From Porpolomopsis calyptriformis (lineage: Eukaryota > Basidiomycota > Agaricomycetes > Agaricales > Hygrophoraceae): a DNA stretch of 64,000 nucleotides. The position numbers and the translations under genes are program-made. The notes under the pieces are model-generated. The model saw only the letters and a program-made list of their open reading frames with translations. It did not search any database and was not told the DNA's origin. Positions 1 through 5,800 of this stretch are shown piece by piece (position 1 is the first letter of the stretch; every line of letters begins with the position of its first letter). The DNA is taken from contig OX621169.1 of the NCBI GenBank assembly GCA_951640195.1, positions 124,001 through 188,000 on the forward strand, given 5' to 3'.

Positions 1-1656
1 TTTATGCAGAACAGATCCCTCTCCAGACGACAAGCACGTTGGATGGAATTCTTAGGCAGATTCGACTTCAAAATCGAGTATTCCCCTGGAGTCAAAAACA
101 AAGCCGATGGACTCTCCCGCCGACCCGACCACCGTCATACAGAAAAAGAAGAATTAGAAGGCCAAGCCCTCCTCCCCCCTGAACGTTTCATCAATGCTAT
201 CATTTCCATGTCCGAACCTTCCTTTATGTCAAGACTTCGCTTCCCCGACTTCAACGAAATCCCAGAGGACATTCGCATCAAGTTATCCGATCCCTCTTCC
301 GGCTACTCCTTCACTGACGGAATTGTGAGAGATGCAGGAGATCGTATTGTCGTGCCAGCAGACGTATTGCTACGCACAGAGATAATTCGATTGACCCACT
401 CCCTGCCCCATGGAGGCCATCCCGGAATCGAGAAGACACGTGAGCTTGTGTTGCGGAACTACACCTGGAGTAGTGCTGCCCCTGACATCCGTGTATTCGT
501 ATCATCCTGTCCGACCTGCCAACAAGTCAAGCTCTATCCTTCAAAGCCTGCAGGTCTCCTGGAACCCATTCCCCCTTCGTCTCGACCTTGGAAAGAAATC
601 ACCGCCAATCTAATCGTGGAACTCCCCCAATCATCTGGCTACGATGCTGTCTTAGTCGTTGTCGACCGCTTCACCAAGCGCGCTCACTTTATTCCGACGA
701 CATCAAATATTTCTGCAGAAGGAGTCGCAAAACTCTTCAGGGACAATGTATGGAAACACCACGGCTGGCCAAAGAAGATCATAACCGATCGAGGAACTCA
801 GTTCGCTTCCAAATTTGCGAAAGCTCTCAACACTCATTTGGGAATCATCTCCGGTCTATCTACCGCTTATCACCCCCAAACTGATGGTCAAACGGAACGT
901 ACCAATCAAGAACTCGAACAATACCTTCGTTTGTATACAAACTTTATGCAAGACGATTGGTCCAACTGGCTATCCTCAGCTGAATTCGCTTACAATAACC
1001 GACAGCACTCCTCGACGAAACACACTCCCTTTTACCTTGATACTGGCCAACATCCCTTCGTCCCACCTGTCCCTACGGCCCCTACTTCCAACCCCGCAGC
1101 AGATACCTTCCACGATCATCTCACAGAAGCCTGTGAAGAAGCCACAAAAGCTCTAGAAACAGCGGCCGAAACCATGAAACGCTTCGCAGATCGCAAACGG
1201 AAAGATACCCAACTCCAAATAGGTCAATTTGTTTATCTTGATACTCGTAACTTAAAAACAGGTCGTCCAACCCTCAAACTTGATGTCCGACGCACCGGAC
1301 CGTTCAAAATTCTAGAAAAGATCGGAAAAGTCTCTTATCGCCTGGCCCTCCCCTTATCATGGAAAATACACGACGTCTTTCACGTTTCACTCCTGAGACC
1401 CGCTAACATTAACTCCGATCTCCACCCAGAGGAAGTAGATGATAATCTCCGTCCACCTCCGGATGTCATTCAAGAGAAAGAAGAATATGAGGTCGAACAA
1501 ATTCTCCAACATCACGGGTCCACCCGACGTCGTACGTATTTGGTCAAATGGGTCGGCTATCCCATTGAAGAAGCAACCTGGGAACCGAAGAAGAATCTCC
1601 TCCATGCGAAAGAACGAATTCTAGAATACGAACAATCAATTCAAACGGCGACCTGA
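1..1656 (+). CDS. TE1 pol, C-terminal part: RNase H end, integrase, chromodomain
   Basis: The frame is open from base 1, so this is the tail of a longer polyprotein. It starts at the end of RNase H (FKIEYSPGVKNKADGLSRRP). Next comes the integrase HHCC zinc-binding region (HPGIEK at about 418, CPTC at about 508), then the integrase core, a GPY/F-type module (about 1270-1400) and a C-terminal chromodomain (1486-1640). The chromodomain has the three aromatic positions expected of a methyl-lysine cage: Y in EYEVE, then W and Y in LVKWVGY. In the core, the second Asp (ITDRGTQF) and the Glu (TDGQTERTNQ) are present, but the first catalytic Asp is Asn (AAT, 607-609). The integrase is therefore probably inactive although the frame is intact. 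Confidence 0.93.
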   Translation, partial: FMQNRSLSRRQARWMEFLGRFDFKIEYSPGVKNKADGLSRRPDHRHTEKEELEGQALLPPERFINAIISMSEPSFMSRLRFPDFNEIPEDIRIKLSDPSSGYSFTDGIVRDAGDRIVVPADVLLRTEIIRLTHSLPHGGHPGIEKTRELVLRNYTWSSAAPDIRVFVSSCPTCQQVKLYPSKPAGLLEPIPPSSRPWKEITANLIVELPQSSGYDAVLVVVDRFTKRAHFIPTTSNISAEGVAKLFRDNVWKHHGWPKKIITDRGTQFASKFAKALNTHLGIISGLSTAYHPQTDGQTERTNQELEQYLRLYTNFMQDDWSNWLSSAEFAYNNRQHSSTKHTPFYLDTGQHPFVPPVPTAPTSNPAADTFHDHLTEACEEATKALETAAETMKRFADRKRKDTQLQIGQFVYLDTRNLKTGRPTLKLDVRRTGPFKILEKIGKVSYRLALPLSWKIHDVFHVSLLRPANINSDLHPEEVDDNLRPPPDVIQEKEEYEVEQILQHHGSTRRRTYLVKWVGYPIEEATWEPKKNLLHAKERILEYEQSIQTAT

Positions 1657-1780
1657 TCACTCTTTCACGGTATCAACTCCCCTCGTTTATATTTTCACTT
1701 TTGTCACCTTTTCCAAACTCCGACTCTTCCTTATAATCTCTTTCGTCTCCGTCTTTCACTCTCAAGAAATCGATCTCGCT

Positions 1781-2359
1781 ATGCCCGCCGAACGCTCACA
1801 TCAAACTGCCCGCAAGTCTACTGGTGGTCGTCCACCCCGCACTCCTCGCATGTCCACTGGAGGGCAACCCCCTCGTCGCGCCCCCCCTCCGCTCGCTTCC
1901 ACCTCCTCCGCTTACGGTGAAGCCGAGCTCGCCGGACAACTCTGGCAGCACAACCGTCGCGCACGAAATCGAGACCTTCCCATATGGCCAGAGGAAATCG
2001 TCGCTCCACCTATCCCGCCCGAGCAGATCATCGAGTCGCTGCAGAAAGATATCGATTATTACAAGAACGAGATCGCAAGACTAAACGAAGAATTGTACAA
2101 CCAAGGAATGAGTTTGGACGGAAAGAGAAGAGCGAGTGAGTACTGGCGGGAGCAGGCCAAACACTGGGAGGCGAAGTACGAGGAAGTCACAAAGGTACTT
2201 CCCCATCTTGATTCTCCAGTTCCCCCTGTTTTCCCGGGTCCACTCATCGTCCCCCCCGGTTCGTCGTCGAACCCCATCACCATCCCCGACGACGGCGATA
2301 TTTCCCCGGTCGACATTATTTCCCTGTCGACCATCGCCTCCAGCAAGGACTCAATCTAG
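1781..2359 (+). CDS. TE1 extra ORF: histone H3-tail-like N-terminus plus coiled coil
   Basis: This 192-codon ORF lies between pol and the 3' LTR, 124 bp after the pol stop. Residues 8-20 read QTARKSTGGRPPR and match histone H3 residues 5-17 (QTARKSTGGKAPR) at 11 of 13 positions, including the ARKS context of H3 lysine 9. Residues 23-32 (RMSTGGQPPR) repeat the block with methionine in the lysine position. A Pro-rich linker follows. A heptad-rich, probably coiled-coil segment covers about residues 82-140, and the Pro/Ser-rich tail contains a GPLIVPPGSSSNPITIP stretch. I see no gag, env or enzyme domain. The first ATG fits the frame and places the H3-like block at the N-terminus as in H3 itself. 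The function is unknown; a role in chromatin targeting or in interfering with silencing is inference. Confidence 0.8.
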   Translation: MPAERSHQTARKSTGGRPPRTPRMSTGGQPPRRAPPPLASTSSAYGEAELAGQLWQHNRRARNRDLPIWPEEIVAPPIPPEQIIESLQKDIDYYKNEIARLNEELYNQGMSLDGKRRASEYWREQAKHWEAKYEEVTKVLPHLDSPVPPVFPGPLIVPPGSSSNPITIPDDGDISPVDIISLSTIASSKDSI

Positions 2360-2439
2360 TCCTTCCCCTCCTCCACACCCTTCAACACTCTCGAAGCCGC
2401 CTCGAATTTCGGGACGAAATTCCTTTTAGTGTGGGTGTA

Positions 2440-2807
2440 TGTCACGGACACTTTTTTCTTTTTCCTTTTAGTCATACTTGATCAGTCTCCATTCCGTTTA
2501 TCCTTCTGCTTTACCATTTTATATATAGACTGATCACATGTACCTTCCTTCCGACTCTTTCACGAGTCACATTCCGTTTCCGCTATTGTTTTCATGACTC
2601 TTCACTAGTCACATTCCGGATTCCACTTTGTAATCGTACATACGACTGACTCATGGCGACTCAGGTAGTTAGTATATAAAGCCTGATCTTTAGTCAGTAG
2701 GATAAGTTCGATTCCTAGTTAGCTCCCCCACTCTTTAGTCGAATTCCATTTCCTCATCAGCCCCTCAAACGCGAGAAGTAAAACCCTTCGACTACCGAAT
2801 CATAACA
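2440..2807 (+). repeat. TE1 3' LTR
   Basis: It begins TGTCACGGACAC and ends CATAACA (368 bp, TG...CA). It contains a TGACTCA site (2647-2653) about 20 bp before a TATATAAAG box (2674). The first 30 bases and the TATA region resemble the TE5 LTR at 59011. Confidence 0.85.
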
Positions 2808-5800
2808 GAATTGGTGCAAACCAATCAAGCAGCTTCAATGCTGTGCATTCCAAAAAAGAATGGCACTCTACGGATGCCAATTGATTGTTGTAAATGCAAT
2901 GACAATACTTTGAAGGACGTTACGCCCTTTCCAGACCAAGACCAGATCAGATATGATGTGGCTGGCAGAATGATAAGGTCAAAAATCGACTTATCAGATG
3001 CCTATAAGCAGGTATGGACAGTACCTGAAGACATGCATAAGAGCGCATTTGCAACTATATATGGTACCTACGTGAGCCATACAATGCAGATAGGAGACTG
3101 CAATGCACCTACTATGTTCCAGCAGGTAATGACAATGATCTTTCGAGATTTTATTAGCATATTCATGCATGCATATCTCAACGATCTATTTATCTATAGT
3201 GCTTCCATCTCAGAGCATGAAAAACACTTGGGTCTCATGTTTGGTAAACTACGAGAATACAAGCTCTACCTCCAAGAGGAGAAGTGTGAACTGTACACTG
3301 ATATTATCGACTGTCTAGGACATAAGATAGATGACAAAGGGCTACACACAGACACTGATAAAATGGCGAGAATACGTGATTGGTGACAACTACACAATTA
3401 CAACAATGTCCAGAAATTTATAGGACTCATACAATATCTGGTGCATTTCCTGCCAGATATCTCAAGCTATACAGGGCCTTTAGCAGCCATGATGTTGAAC
3501 AGGCAACCATTCACATGGAGACCAATCCATGATAAATGCTTTGAAATGATGATGCGATGTGGAGCTGTCTGAGCTCTGGGATCTGCCCTGAGAGATGGTG
3601 GGAGGCACAATAGAAAGGAGCTATCAAAGAAATCGTGAAAATTGAAGAAATAGAAGAAATCGGAAATTCGGAGCACTCTCTAGAGTGCTAGAGGCAGTCA
3701 AAGAGGCTCAAACATGAAGGACTAGACGTGGGACGACGGAATCTATCTTCTTTCTCTATGATACAAACATATCTACAAGTAAATATATCTGTGAAAACAA
3801 AGATCCCTTTATATGCTATATAGTAAAGGGATGAGACTTCTGAACGAAGCCACCAGTGAAAGGGATGATGGAAACGATGGAGAACTACACAATGGACATC
3901 TGGCTATCAGATGCATCCTTTGATATGAGCTGCGATTGGGAATTGAAGGATTGAAGAATTTGAAGAAATTTGCAGAAATCCGAAGAATTTGGAGATAAAT
4001 CGCTGGACAGGAAGCTGAATCGCATAGTCAGGGACATCGTAGCAGTGTAGTAGACATCTGGGGGAACACATAGATATATGAAACATGTCCTCCGGAGCTC
4101 AAGGGACCAAGGGGTCATATCAATGATAAAGCAGATATGCTGCTTGACACCTATACTAGTGCCAATAATACGTCACAAGAAAGATGAACCTATATGGGTC
4201 ACCTGTGATGCCTCAATACATGGCATCAGTGCAATGTATGGACAAGGCCCTACCTGGCAAGCCTGCAGACCAGCAGGATTTATGTCGCAAAAGTTTACGG
4301 ATGCTCAATGAAATTATTGTACATTCAAGTATGAAACGATTGTGATACTTGAAGCCCTCCTTAAATGGGAGGACAAACTGATAGGATATTGGGTTCACGT
4401 TGTGACCAACTATCAAGCTCTTGAGTTTTTCAAGATGCAAAGACACCTGTCTAGCTGACAAGCTTGTTGGATGGAGTACCTATCAAGATTTGACTTTGAT
4501 ATAACATACGTCAAAGGGAAACTGAATAAAGTTGCCAATGCGCTATCACGTTATTATGAAAGTAATACATGGTATGACGCTCATCCTATAAGTGACTATG
4601 TAGATGTAGATATACATCTAGACCCTGAAAAAGATAATCTCCCTTGTAATCGTCTAAATGAAATTAGTACTGGAGCCATTGAAATGAAGGCTATCCAGGT
4701 TGTTGAAGACATTCAACAATGCCAAAGCAATTGTCTCCTTGAAAGAGAAGAAGATAGAGATGCACAAGCAGCAGTGCTCGTGCTAGTTCTAATTCCAGAA
4801 ATGGAACTAATGAAAAAATTAAGATCATCCCCAGACAATCCAATGATATTCCAATCCTGTAAATGGGGAGAGAACTTAAGTGCTCGTATAGAGTATGATG
4901 AATCACTGACAGTAGCAATTCACGGAGGATACAAATCCGACACATTATTCAGCAAGGTTCTCGAAAACCCTGATCACTATAAGGCATTCACTATCCATGA
5001 AGGCCTGATTTGGTCCAAGAATTTGGGGGGAGAGGAAGTACTATGTATCCCATCTGCAAAGATGGGACAAGAATCAATTTTCGGCCTTATCATTGATCAA
5101 GCACATTCAATAGTGGGCCATTTTGGTCCACAACGTACTGCCAACTATGTAAGATGATGGTACTGGTGGCCAAAAATATTTAGTCACATTAAACAATTCT
5201 GCAAGTTGTGTCAGACTTGTCAAACATTGAAAGACAATATGCAGCACCCAACAGGACTGTTACATTCTTTACCCATACCCACAAAACCATGGCAATCAAT
5301 CGGAATGGACTTTATTAGTCCATTTCCCGAAATTGACGGGTACAATTACCTATGGGTAGTCATTTGTCGAATGACATCAATAATCCACCTGATACTGGTG
5401 AATACTAAAATGAAAGCATCAGAGCTTTTGTGGATCTACTTAAAAGAAGTAGTAAGGCTTCATGGCCTTTCTGAAAGTATAGTCTCAGACTGAGACTCAA
5501 AATTTACTTCCAAATGGTGGAGCAAACTTCATAGGCTCTTAGGAGCTAAACTATTGATGTCTACATCTTTCCATCCACAGATGGATGGTGCAACTGAGCA
5601 AGCTAATTGTTCAATAGGTCAAATCCTCTGAGCGACCGTAAGCTCAGATCAACAAGACTGGATTGCAAAGATCCCTATGACCAAATTCATGATTAATACA
5701 AGTATCAGTGAAGCTACAGGCTTCACCCCTTTCAAGCTGAACAGAGCTTATATGCCCACTATGATTAAGTAGGTAGAAAATACCACTGAGACACCACCAG

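What the first reader, a model, noticed from the sequence alone, without database searches (positions are those of the whole stretch)
1781..1880. Retrotransposon ORF begins with a near copy of the histone H3 lysine-9 tail
Residues 8-20 of the TE1 extra ORF (QTARKSTGGRPPR, bases 1802-1840) match H3 residues 5-17 at 11 of 13 positions, with QTARKSTGG exact. The block is N-terminal as in H3, and no histone fold follows; instead there is a Pro-rich linker and a coiled coil. Histone mimics with ARKS/ARKT contexts are known for host and some viral proteins. I do not recall one carried as a separate ORF on a fungal chromovirus. It could be methylated by the host H3K9 methyltransferase and recruit or titrate silencing proteins.
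Basis: partly seen in the sequence, partly recalled or inferred. Interest (0 to 1): 0.88.

Follow-up and report, generated by a model that had tools for sequence, protein, structure and literature searches.

The report
Retrotransposon protein with histone-H3-like tail
A fungal retrotransposon carries an extra protein gene whose start copies the part of histone H3 around lysine 9, a silencing switch; that part is kept by selection while its surroundings drift, so the element probably uses it to engage the silencing machinery.

Summary
A 192-residue ORF (1781-2359, +) between a chromodomain-bearing pol and the 3' LTR starts MPAERSHQTARKSTGGRPPR; QTARKSTGG equals H3 5-13. The genome holds 102 listed places of this ORF. 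In the 80 aligned copies K and S of ARKS never change although their codons do; 64 of 80 keep all nine residues. On internal branches the motif has 2 amino-acid-changing and 17 silent changes (omega 0.05), while residues on either side are near neutral over all branches (one search agrees, more weakly in stop-free copies). So it is a selected, H3-Lys9-sized module, not a chance match. Two other extra ORFs in the same genome lack it: it is one family's trait. The kept block drops K4 and K14; the element's own chromodomain keeps its Y/W/Y cage (58 of 59 copies), and one Pre-SET match lies beside a SET match in the genome. Best reading: a methylatable H3K9 decoy or adaptor on a helical scaffold. 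Methylation, binding, expression and spread to other species are untested. Verdict: real and selected; mechanism inferred.

The parts
1..1656 (+). 3' part of pol: integrase zinc finger, rve core, SH3_Tf2-1, chromodomain (the element starts upstream of the window)
   Evidence: Pfam PF17921, PF00665, PF24626, PF00385 over cut-off; probable 5' LTR at G000:C7:120120-120496
1480..1653 (+). integrase C-terminal chromodomain with Y/W/Y aromatic cage
   Evidence: best PDB relatives Oxpecker, CDYL, HP1; cage kept in 58 of 59 copies with a chromodomain match, out of 60 copies looked at
1657..1780 (+). pyrimidine-rich spacer before the extra ORF; a leader or promoter role is inference
   Evidence: pyrimidine fraction mean 0.72 over the last 120 nt before ATG in 60 copies
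1781..2359 (+). extra ORF, 192 aa, H3-tail mimic protein
   Evidence: dN 0.145, dS 0.958 against a subfamily copy with 76% aa identity
1802..1828 (+). QTARKSTGG block, identical to H3 5-13, the constrained module
1829..1879 (+). RPPRTPR and second partial copy STGGQPPRR, not constrained over all branches
   Evidence: omega 1.15 (residues 17-23) and 0.87 (24-33) over all branches
2018..2209 (+). helical, coiled-coil-like part (residues 80-143), similar to the extra ORF of another element
   Evidence: omega 0.33 for residues 81-143 over all branches
2431..2808 (+). 3' LTR
   Evidence: 99% match to C7:120120-120496; read directly

Best explanation
The ORF is an accessory protein of a Ty3/gypsy chromovirus. 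Its unstructured N-terminus presents an H3 Lys9 module (Q5 to G13 of H3) and its helical part probably multimerises it. Shown: the module exists, is kept by purifying selection on its amino acids, and belongs to one family in this genome. Inferred: the host SUV39/Clr4-type enzyme methylates the lysine (K12 of the ORF) and HP1-type chromodomains bind it, so that the protein acts as a decoy or adaptor in H3K9 silencing to the element's benefit. Whether the main partner is a host protein or the element's own integrase chromodomain is open; I lean to host proteins.
For: 80 of 80 aligned copies keep K and S, with AAG/AAA and TCT/TCA/TCC codons. Motif N:S on internal branches 2:17 (omega 0.05; without the CpG-rich Arg codon 0:16), against 216:286 in the rest (omega 0.36), with residues 2-7 and 17-33 near neutral over all branches. 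With the tree built without the motif: internal 1:17, Fisher against flanks p=0.00048; all branches 18:43, p=3.4e-8 against flanks and 0.0025 against the rest. The kept block covers the H3 Lys9 reader/writer site (residues 5-10 for HP1 chromodomains, recalled) and excludes K4 and K14. A diverged subfamily has in-frame extra residues just before the motif (MPAERIQHHS) yet keeps QTARKSTGGRPPR. One Pre-SET match lies beside a SET match on the same strand (C14:898851-899870). CpG C-to-T changes are about three times as frequent as other C-to-T changes at fourfold sites, as expected of methylated, silenced copies.
Against: No methylation, binding, localisation or expression data. The Arg8 equivalent, needed by SUV39-type enzymes (recalled), is His or Cys in 7 of 58 stop-free copies. 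HP1 was not found by the chromo-shadow model (it rang in no control, so uninformative). Other extra ORFs do without the motif. On internal branches the flanks too are below neutrality (omega 0.34 for residues 2-7, 0.38 for 17-23). Contrast with the rest of the ORF is weak on two cuts: stop-free copies, internal branches, 1:12 against 102:195, p=0.067; all copies, terminal branches, 17:26 against 620:553, p=0.09. Other windows of the ORF are as constrained: rank 7 of 182 by omega; in stop-free copies 9 of 182 windows have fewer internal amino-acid changes.
Confidence: 0.55

Rival explanations
1. Self-pairing: the methylated tail is a ligand for the element's own integrase chromodomain, holding or steering the integrase (assembly or target choice) rather than acting on host proteins.
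For: Chromodomain with intact Y/W/Y cage encoded about 125 bp upstream; 80 of 82 integrase rows of the family are followed by the ORF. MAGGY's chromodomain binds H3K9me2/3 (stated in PMC3350952, passages).
Against: Family B has a 66-67% identical integrase-chromodomain region and, in the one copy read, an extra ORF without the motif. In the chimeric copies the ORF is open while the neighbouring pol remnant is frameshifted.
Confidence: 0.2
2. The basic N-terminus is a nuclear import or nucleic-acid-binding signal that happens to resemble the H3 tail.
For: The N-terminus is Arg/Pro-rich; the H3 tail is itself an import signal, and K14R had only a minor effect on import (PMC5677370, passages).
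Against: In the Kap123 structure H3 residues 12-17 and 21-26 are ordered and K14 and K23 fill the pockets. Here the K14 position is R in 64 of 80 copies and C, H or Y in 16, and residues 17-23 are near neutral over all branches. A plain basic signal does not need Q, T, K, S and T fixed.
Confidence: 0.12
3. The conserved target is another H3-tail enzyme: a Ser10/Thr11 kinase, or an acetyltransferase acting on K9, so the mimic diverts mitotic or transcriptional marks rather than methylation.
For: S and T after K are invariant in 80 of 80 aligned copies.
Against: K14, the usual Gcn5 site (recalled), is not kept. No direct test.
Confidence: 0.08
4. Passenger: a captured or chance H3-like stretch without function.
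For: Codons are close to host H3 (25 of 26 bases between some copies and the C5:691281 H3 gene), and in the C2:3412913 H3 gene this block seems bounded by an intron on each side.
Against: Constraint against an empirical CpG-aware neutral model: P=1e-7 internal, 2.7e-11 all branches.
Confidence: 0.05

Closest known systems
Histone mimics with ARKS-type motifs (G9a/EHMT targets such as WIZ and LIG1; SARS-CoV-2 ORF8 ARKS; adenovirus protein VII AKKRS)
   Same: A short H3-like linear motif in a non-histone protein (PMC10611923 and PMC10208167, passages)
   Different: Here nine residues are exact, N-terminal, on a transposon-encoded protein, with codon-level evidence of selection; the viral ORF8 case is disputed (PMC10833455, passages)
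Chromoviruses such as MAGGY
   [quoted passage not shown] gypsy-type pol
   Different: LTR elements are described as usually encoding two ORFs, gag and pol (PMC3248453, passages); here a further ORF carries a ligand-like tail
Additional ORFs of LTR retrotransposons (bdelloid ORF3; orchid m6A demethylase domain; 'add. ORF' in a figure legend of the survey of Tcn1-like elements)
   Same: Extra coding sequence besides gag and pol; in bdelloids shared between unrelated elements (PMC5408684 and PMC2864245, passages; the orchid paper only in search listings)
   Different: The passages seen describe no histone tail
EZHIP, an H3 K27M-like inhibitor of PRC2
   Same: Non-histone protein that copies an H3 lysine context (start of abstract in a listing, PMC6513997)
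   Different: EZHIP works like a K-to-M mutant; here the lysine is kept in all 80 aligned copies, so substrate or ligand is more likely

Membership tests
Ty3/gypsy chromovirus | integrase with C-terminal chromodomain | tested here: met
   PF17921, PF00665, PF00385 over cut-off; PDB relatives
Ty3/gypsy chromovirus | paired LTRs, TG...CA type | tested here: met
   3' LTR 2431-2808 read directly; 99% partner in the same orientation at C7:120120-120496, 6.7 kb span
Ty3/gypsy chromovirus | gag, protease, RT, RNase H upstream in order | not tested
Open frames of 1214 aa (window copy) and 1273 aa (several others) are reported around the integrase
Group I (HP1-like) chromodomain | aromatic cage residues Y24, W45, Y48 | tested here: met
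   Y/W/Y in 58 of 59 copies; one has a stop at W; 1 of 60 copies gave no chromodomain match; definition in PMC3350952 (passages)
Group I (HP1-like) chromodomain | binds H3K9me2/3 | not testable with these tools
   needs peptide binding; the single-sequence fold was too poor to use (pLDDT 52.3)
Histone H3 | histone fold after the tail | tested here: not met
   no histone match in Pfam; model of low confidence shows separate helices
H3K9 mimic | H3 Lys9 sequence context in a non-histone protein | tested here: met
   QTARKSTGG exact in 64 of 80 aligned copies
H3K9 mimic | motif kept by selection on its residues | tested here: met
   two weaker cuts (p=0.067 and 0.09 against the rest of the ORF)
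H3K9 mimic | lysine methylated and read by chromodomain proteins | not testable with these tools
   host Pre-SET and SET matches found; HP1 search uninformative

The most novel reading that the evidence does not exclude
The element carries both halves of a silencing signal: a methylatable H3 Lys9 tail on its accessory protein and a cage-intact reader on its integrase. It thus uses the host H3K9 methyltransferase as a switch to control its own integrase or to blunt heterochromatin on its copies, and the tail module has been passed on inside a second retroelement.
Probability: 0.25. Interest if true: 0.92.

Novelty: new variant of a known kind. Interest (0 to 1): 0.76.

Why it matters
Transposons are main targets of H3K9 silencing. 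An element that encodes a selected copy of the very peptide that is methylated and read would be a transposon-borne counter-silencing or targeting factor, testable at one residue (K12) in peptide assays and yeast. The searches aimed at mimicry (listings of 20, 15, 0, 15 and 10 papers, titles and starts of abstracts) showed no report of an H3-tail mimic on a retrotransposon, nor did those on extra ORFs and chromodomains. The library holds open-licence papers only, and longer hit lists were not read to the end.

Tried and rejected
Cross-species search: the ORF had 165 word-sharing candidates and none at E<=10 in about 5.8 billion proteins. The family B extra ORF had 2958 candidates and none at E<=1. 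The integrase part has 6786 relatives at E<=1e-20 among 7996 scored, the best full-length ones at about 67% identity. So kin of pol are held there but no kin of the ORF was found; that database gives no genomic context, so I cannot say which relatives lack the ORF. Viral contigs: the DNA pattern gave 3 loci; two read QTASKS and QTASKT in the frames listed and the third no H3-like frame, and the listed frames show no pol beside them. ORF and integrase scans there gave no relative.

Frameshift fusion of pol and ORF: the ORF frame is open upstream (244 aa in the window copy) and overlaps the end of pol, but in the family B copy read it does not reach pol's end, so I do not propose it. Promoter: CAAG within 40 nt of the start is in only 18 of 60 copies.

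Origin: capture of H3 exon sequence against convergence is unresolved. For capture: near-identical codons and, in one host H3 gene, apparent introns on both sides of this block. For convergence: family B's ORF shares the start MPAxRS and a basic stretch QVAIRRAGR at about the same place. A to B similarity is weak (E 0.009 for one pair).

Integration-site clustering: 18 of 82 integrase rows have a neighbour within 20 kb, against 7.6 expected from uniform placement (15 of 2000 simulations reach it). One copy is split into two rows and clustering has many causes, so I give it no weight.

Rows dropped: of 102 listed ORF places the selection test used 80 that were held and start at residue 1 (77 unique); 22 were left out, fragments and mostly the most decayed copies. 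Three of those 22 have the exact DNA pattern. The chromodomain fold was too poor to use, and no fold search was run.

Full report
Observation. The ORF at 1781-2359 (+) encodes MPAERSHQTARKSTGGRPPRTPRMSTGGQPPRR.... Bases 1802-1828 encode QTARKSTGG, identical to H3 5-13; to base 1840 the match is 11 of 13. H3 tail peptides head the PDB list for the first 40 residues (E 0.007, short match). Pfam finds no histone domain in the ORF. A single-sequence AlphaFold model (mean pLDDT 55.7) leaves the N-terminus unstructured and gives helices 47-62, 80-107, 112-143.

Setting. Upstream, 1-1656 is the end of pol with zinc finger, integrase core, SH3_Tf2-1 and chromodomain. The 3' LTR is 2431-2808 and its probable 5' partner (99%) lies at C7:120120-120496, so the element spans about 6.7 kb, more than half of it left of the window. 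The window is part of C7 of an unnamed 33.5 Mb genome in 17 contigs.

Copies. The ORF protein finds 128 matching stretches in the genome. 18 of them are a distant relative (30-35% identity over the coiled-coil part); the rest fall into 102 listed places of this ORF, fragments included. The exact degenerate pattern of QTARKSTGG occurs 70 times (reversed control 0): 67 in ORF places and 3 in host H3 genes. Of 82 integrase rows of the same family (77% identity or more; one copy gives two rows), 80 are followed by the ORF: 75 at 119-148 bp, one at 280 bp, four at distances not printed. Of 31 rows of a second family (66-67%), none is followed by it within 3 kb. Only 112 of 1003 candidates were scored, so both counts are lower bounds.

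Other extra ORFs lack the motif. One copy of the second family (B) was read: it has its own ORF after pol, MPATRSPSPQVAIRRAGRIP..., 245 aa, without QTARKS; similarity to the ORF is weak (E 0.009). The distant relative (C), MSTPYSAEAQRQW..., aligns in the coiled coil (33% over 88 columns, pairwise E 6e-10) and has no H3 tail. It follows a frame that I take for an integrase end by eye; Pfam gives only a sub-threshold SH3_Tf2-1 match. So a coiled-coil ORF is wider than the tail, and the tail is a trait of one family here.

Selection. 80 copies starting at residue 1 were aligned by codon (77 unique; 22 of the 80 have stops). K12 and S13 are invariant in 80 of 80, with two and three codons respectively; Q8, T9 and T14 are also invariant; A10 is T in 2; R11 is R in 67, H in 8, C in 5; G15 is S in 1 and G16 in 3. 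49 of 58 stop-free and 15 of 22 broken copies have the exact nine residues. Against a neutral model with rates from fourfold sites including CpG, the motif has N=2, S=17 on internal branches (expected N:S 2.36; omega 0.05; P=1e-7) and N=17, S=43 on all (omega 0.17; P=2.7e-11). Over all branches residues 2-7 have omega 0.73, 17-23 1.15, the second STGG copy 0.87, residues 81-143 0.33; on internal branches the rest of the ORF has 0.36, residues 2-7 0.34 and 17-23 0.38. With a tree built without the motif: internal 1:17 against flanks 26:23 (p=0.00048) and rest 200:286 (p=0.0022); all branches 18:43 against flanks 148:64 (p=3.4e-8) and rest 820:839 (p=0.0025); terminal 17:26 against flanks 122:41 (p=3.5e-5) and rest 620:553 (p=0.09). 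With stop-free copies only: internal 1:12 against rest 102:195 (p=0.067) and flanks 14:16 (p=0.017); all 8:31 against rest 502:559 (p=0.0009). The motif is among the most constrained windows but not alone: rank 7 of 182 by omega, and in stop-free copies 9 of 182 windows have fewer internal amino-acid changes. Gene conversion between copies could blur the tree, but should not by itself remove only amino-acid-changing events. The whole ORF is constrained: dN 0.145, dS 0.958 between the window copy and the diverged subfamily.

What the boundaries say. The constrained block is H3 5-13. HP1 chromodomains contact about residues 5-10 and SUV39-type enzymes need the ARKS context (recalled). Importin Kap123 orders residues 12-17 and 21-26 and uses K14 and K23 (PMC5677370, passages); those lysines are not present here. 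So the kept part looks like the K9 writer/reader site rather than the import signal; K4 and K14 are dropped.

Partners. The integrase chromodomain aligns with Oxpecker, CDYL and HP1 and keeps Y/W/Y in 58 of 59 copies. MAGGY's chromodomain binds H3K9me2/3 (PMC3350952, passages). The host has one Pre-SET match next to a SET match, both minus strand on C14, in the order of a SUV39/Clr4-type gene; the SET stretch is read across stops, probably an intron. DNA methylase matches exist (6 stretches). The chromo-shadow search found nothing and rang in no control, so HP1 is not assessed.

Host H3 and origin. In the host H3 gene at C2:3412913 an intron seems to sit before Q5 and another within codon G13, so a 25-base exon would encode this same block; the two C5 H3 genes have only the second intron (splice sites read by eye). 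Codons of some copies differ from a C5 gene at one of 26 bases. This suggests capture, but family B's similar basic start leaves convergence open.

A second carrier. In L031 (C1) and L052 (C4) a 1.2 kb piece of this element (window 1335-2529: end of pol, spacer, ORF, start of the LTR) sits beside other retroelement sequence; at C1 the further read (L081, the same place as L031) shows the family C ORF downstream. C1 and C4 are 99.93% identical over the 3026 bases held, and C5 (L109) equals C1 over the 619 bases held. The ORF is open there while the pol remnant is frameshifted. The ORF with its tail has thus probably been copied along within another element.

Mechanism. I commit to an H3 Lys9 decoy or adaptor: methylated by the host enzyme, bound by chromodomain proteins, multivalent through the helical part. 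The selected motif is shown; methylation, partners and benefit are inferred. Self-pairing with the integrase chromodomain is the most interesting rival; family B and the chimera argue mildly for a host-directed role.

Literature. Histone mimicry is known (PMC10611923, PMC10208167, passages), sometimes disputed (PMC10833455, passages). Extra ORFs on LTR elements are known (PMC5408684, PMC2864245, passages). The listings showed no H3-tail mimic on a retrotransposon. Hence a new variant of a known kind.

Noticed in passing
L031:1036-2229, L052 (reverse); L081 is the same C1 place as L031: A 1.2 kb 3' piece of this element (chromodomain end, ORF, LTR start) sits beside other retroelement sequence in near-identical copies at C1 and C4 (ORF alone also read at C5); the ORF is open, the pol remnant frameshifted.
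   Followed up: partly
L047:1501-1525 (G000:C2:3412913): Host H3 gene with an apparent 25-base exon encoding QTARKSTG(G), with splice-site-like borders on both sides (by eye).
   Followed up: partly
L116:273-1007: Second chromovirus family has its own extra ORF after pol (245 aa), no Pfam match over cut-off and no protein-database match at E<=1.
   Followed up: partly
L002:1501-2957 (G000:C2:2684494-2688069): A near-identical element copy appears inserted into the extra ORF of a diverged copy, so the family seems to nest in itself.
   Followed up: no
L091 and L092 (G000:C5:682300-683000, 691150-692000): Two host H3 genes read KAPRKQLAAKSSAGRKTS and KAPRKQLAAKSSAARKTA, unlike the C2 gene (KAPRKQLATKAARKTAQ); possible H3 variants (exons by eye).
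   Followed up: no
window 2811-5493: Broken frames that look by eye like gypsy reverse transcriptase and integrase pieces lie just after the LTR, apparently an older element.
   Followed up: no
ORF copies, fourfold sites: CpG C-to-T changes are about three times as frequent as other C-to-T changes (0.138 against 0.048), a sign of cytosine methylation of the copies.
   Followed up: partly
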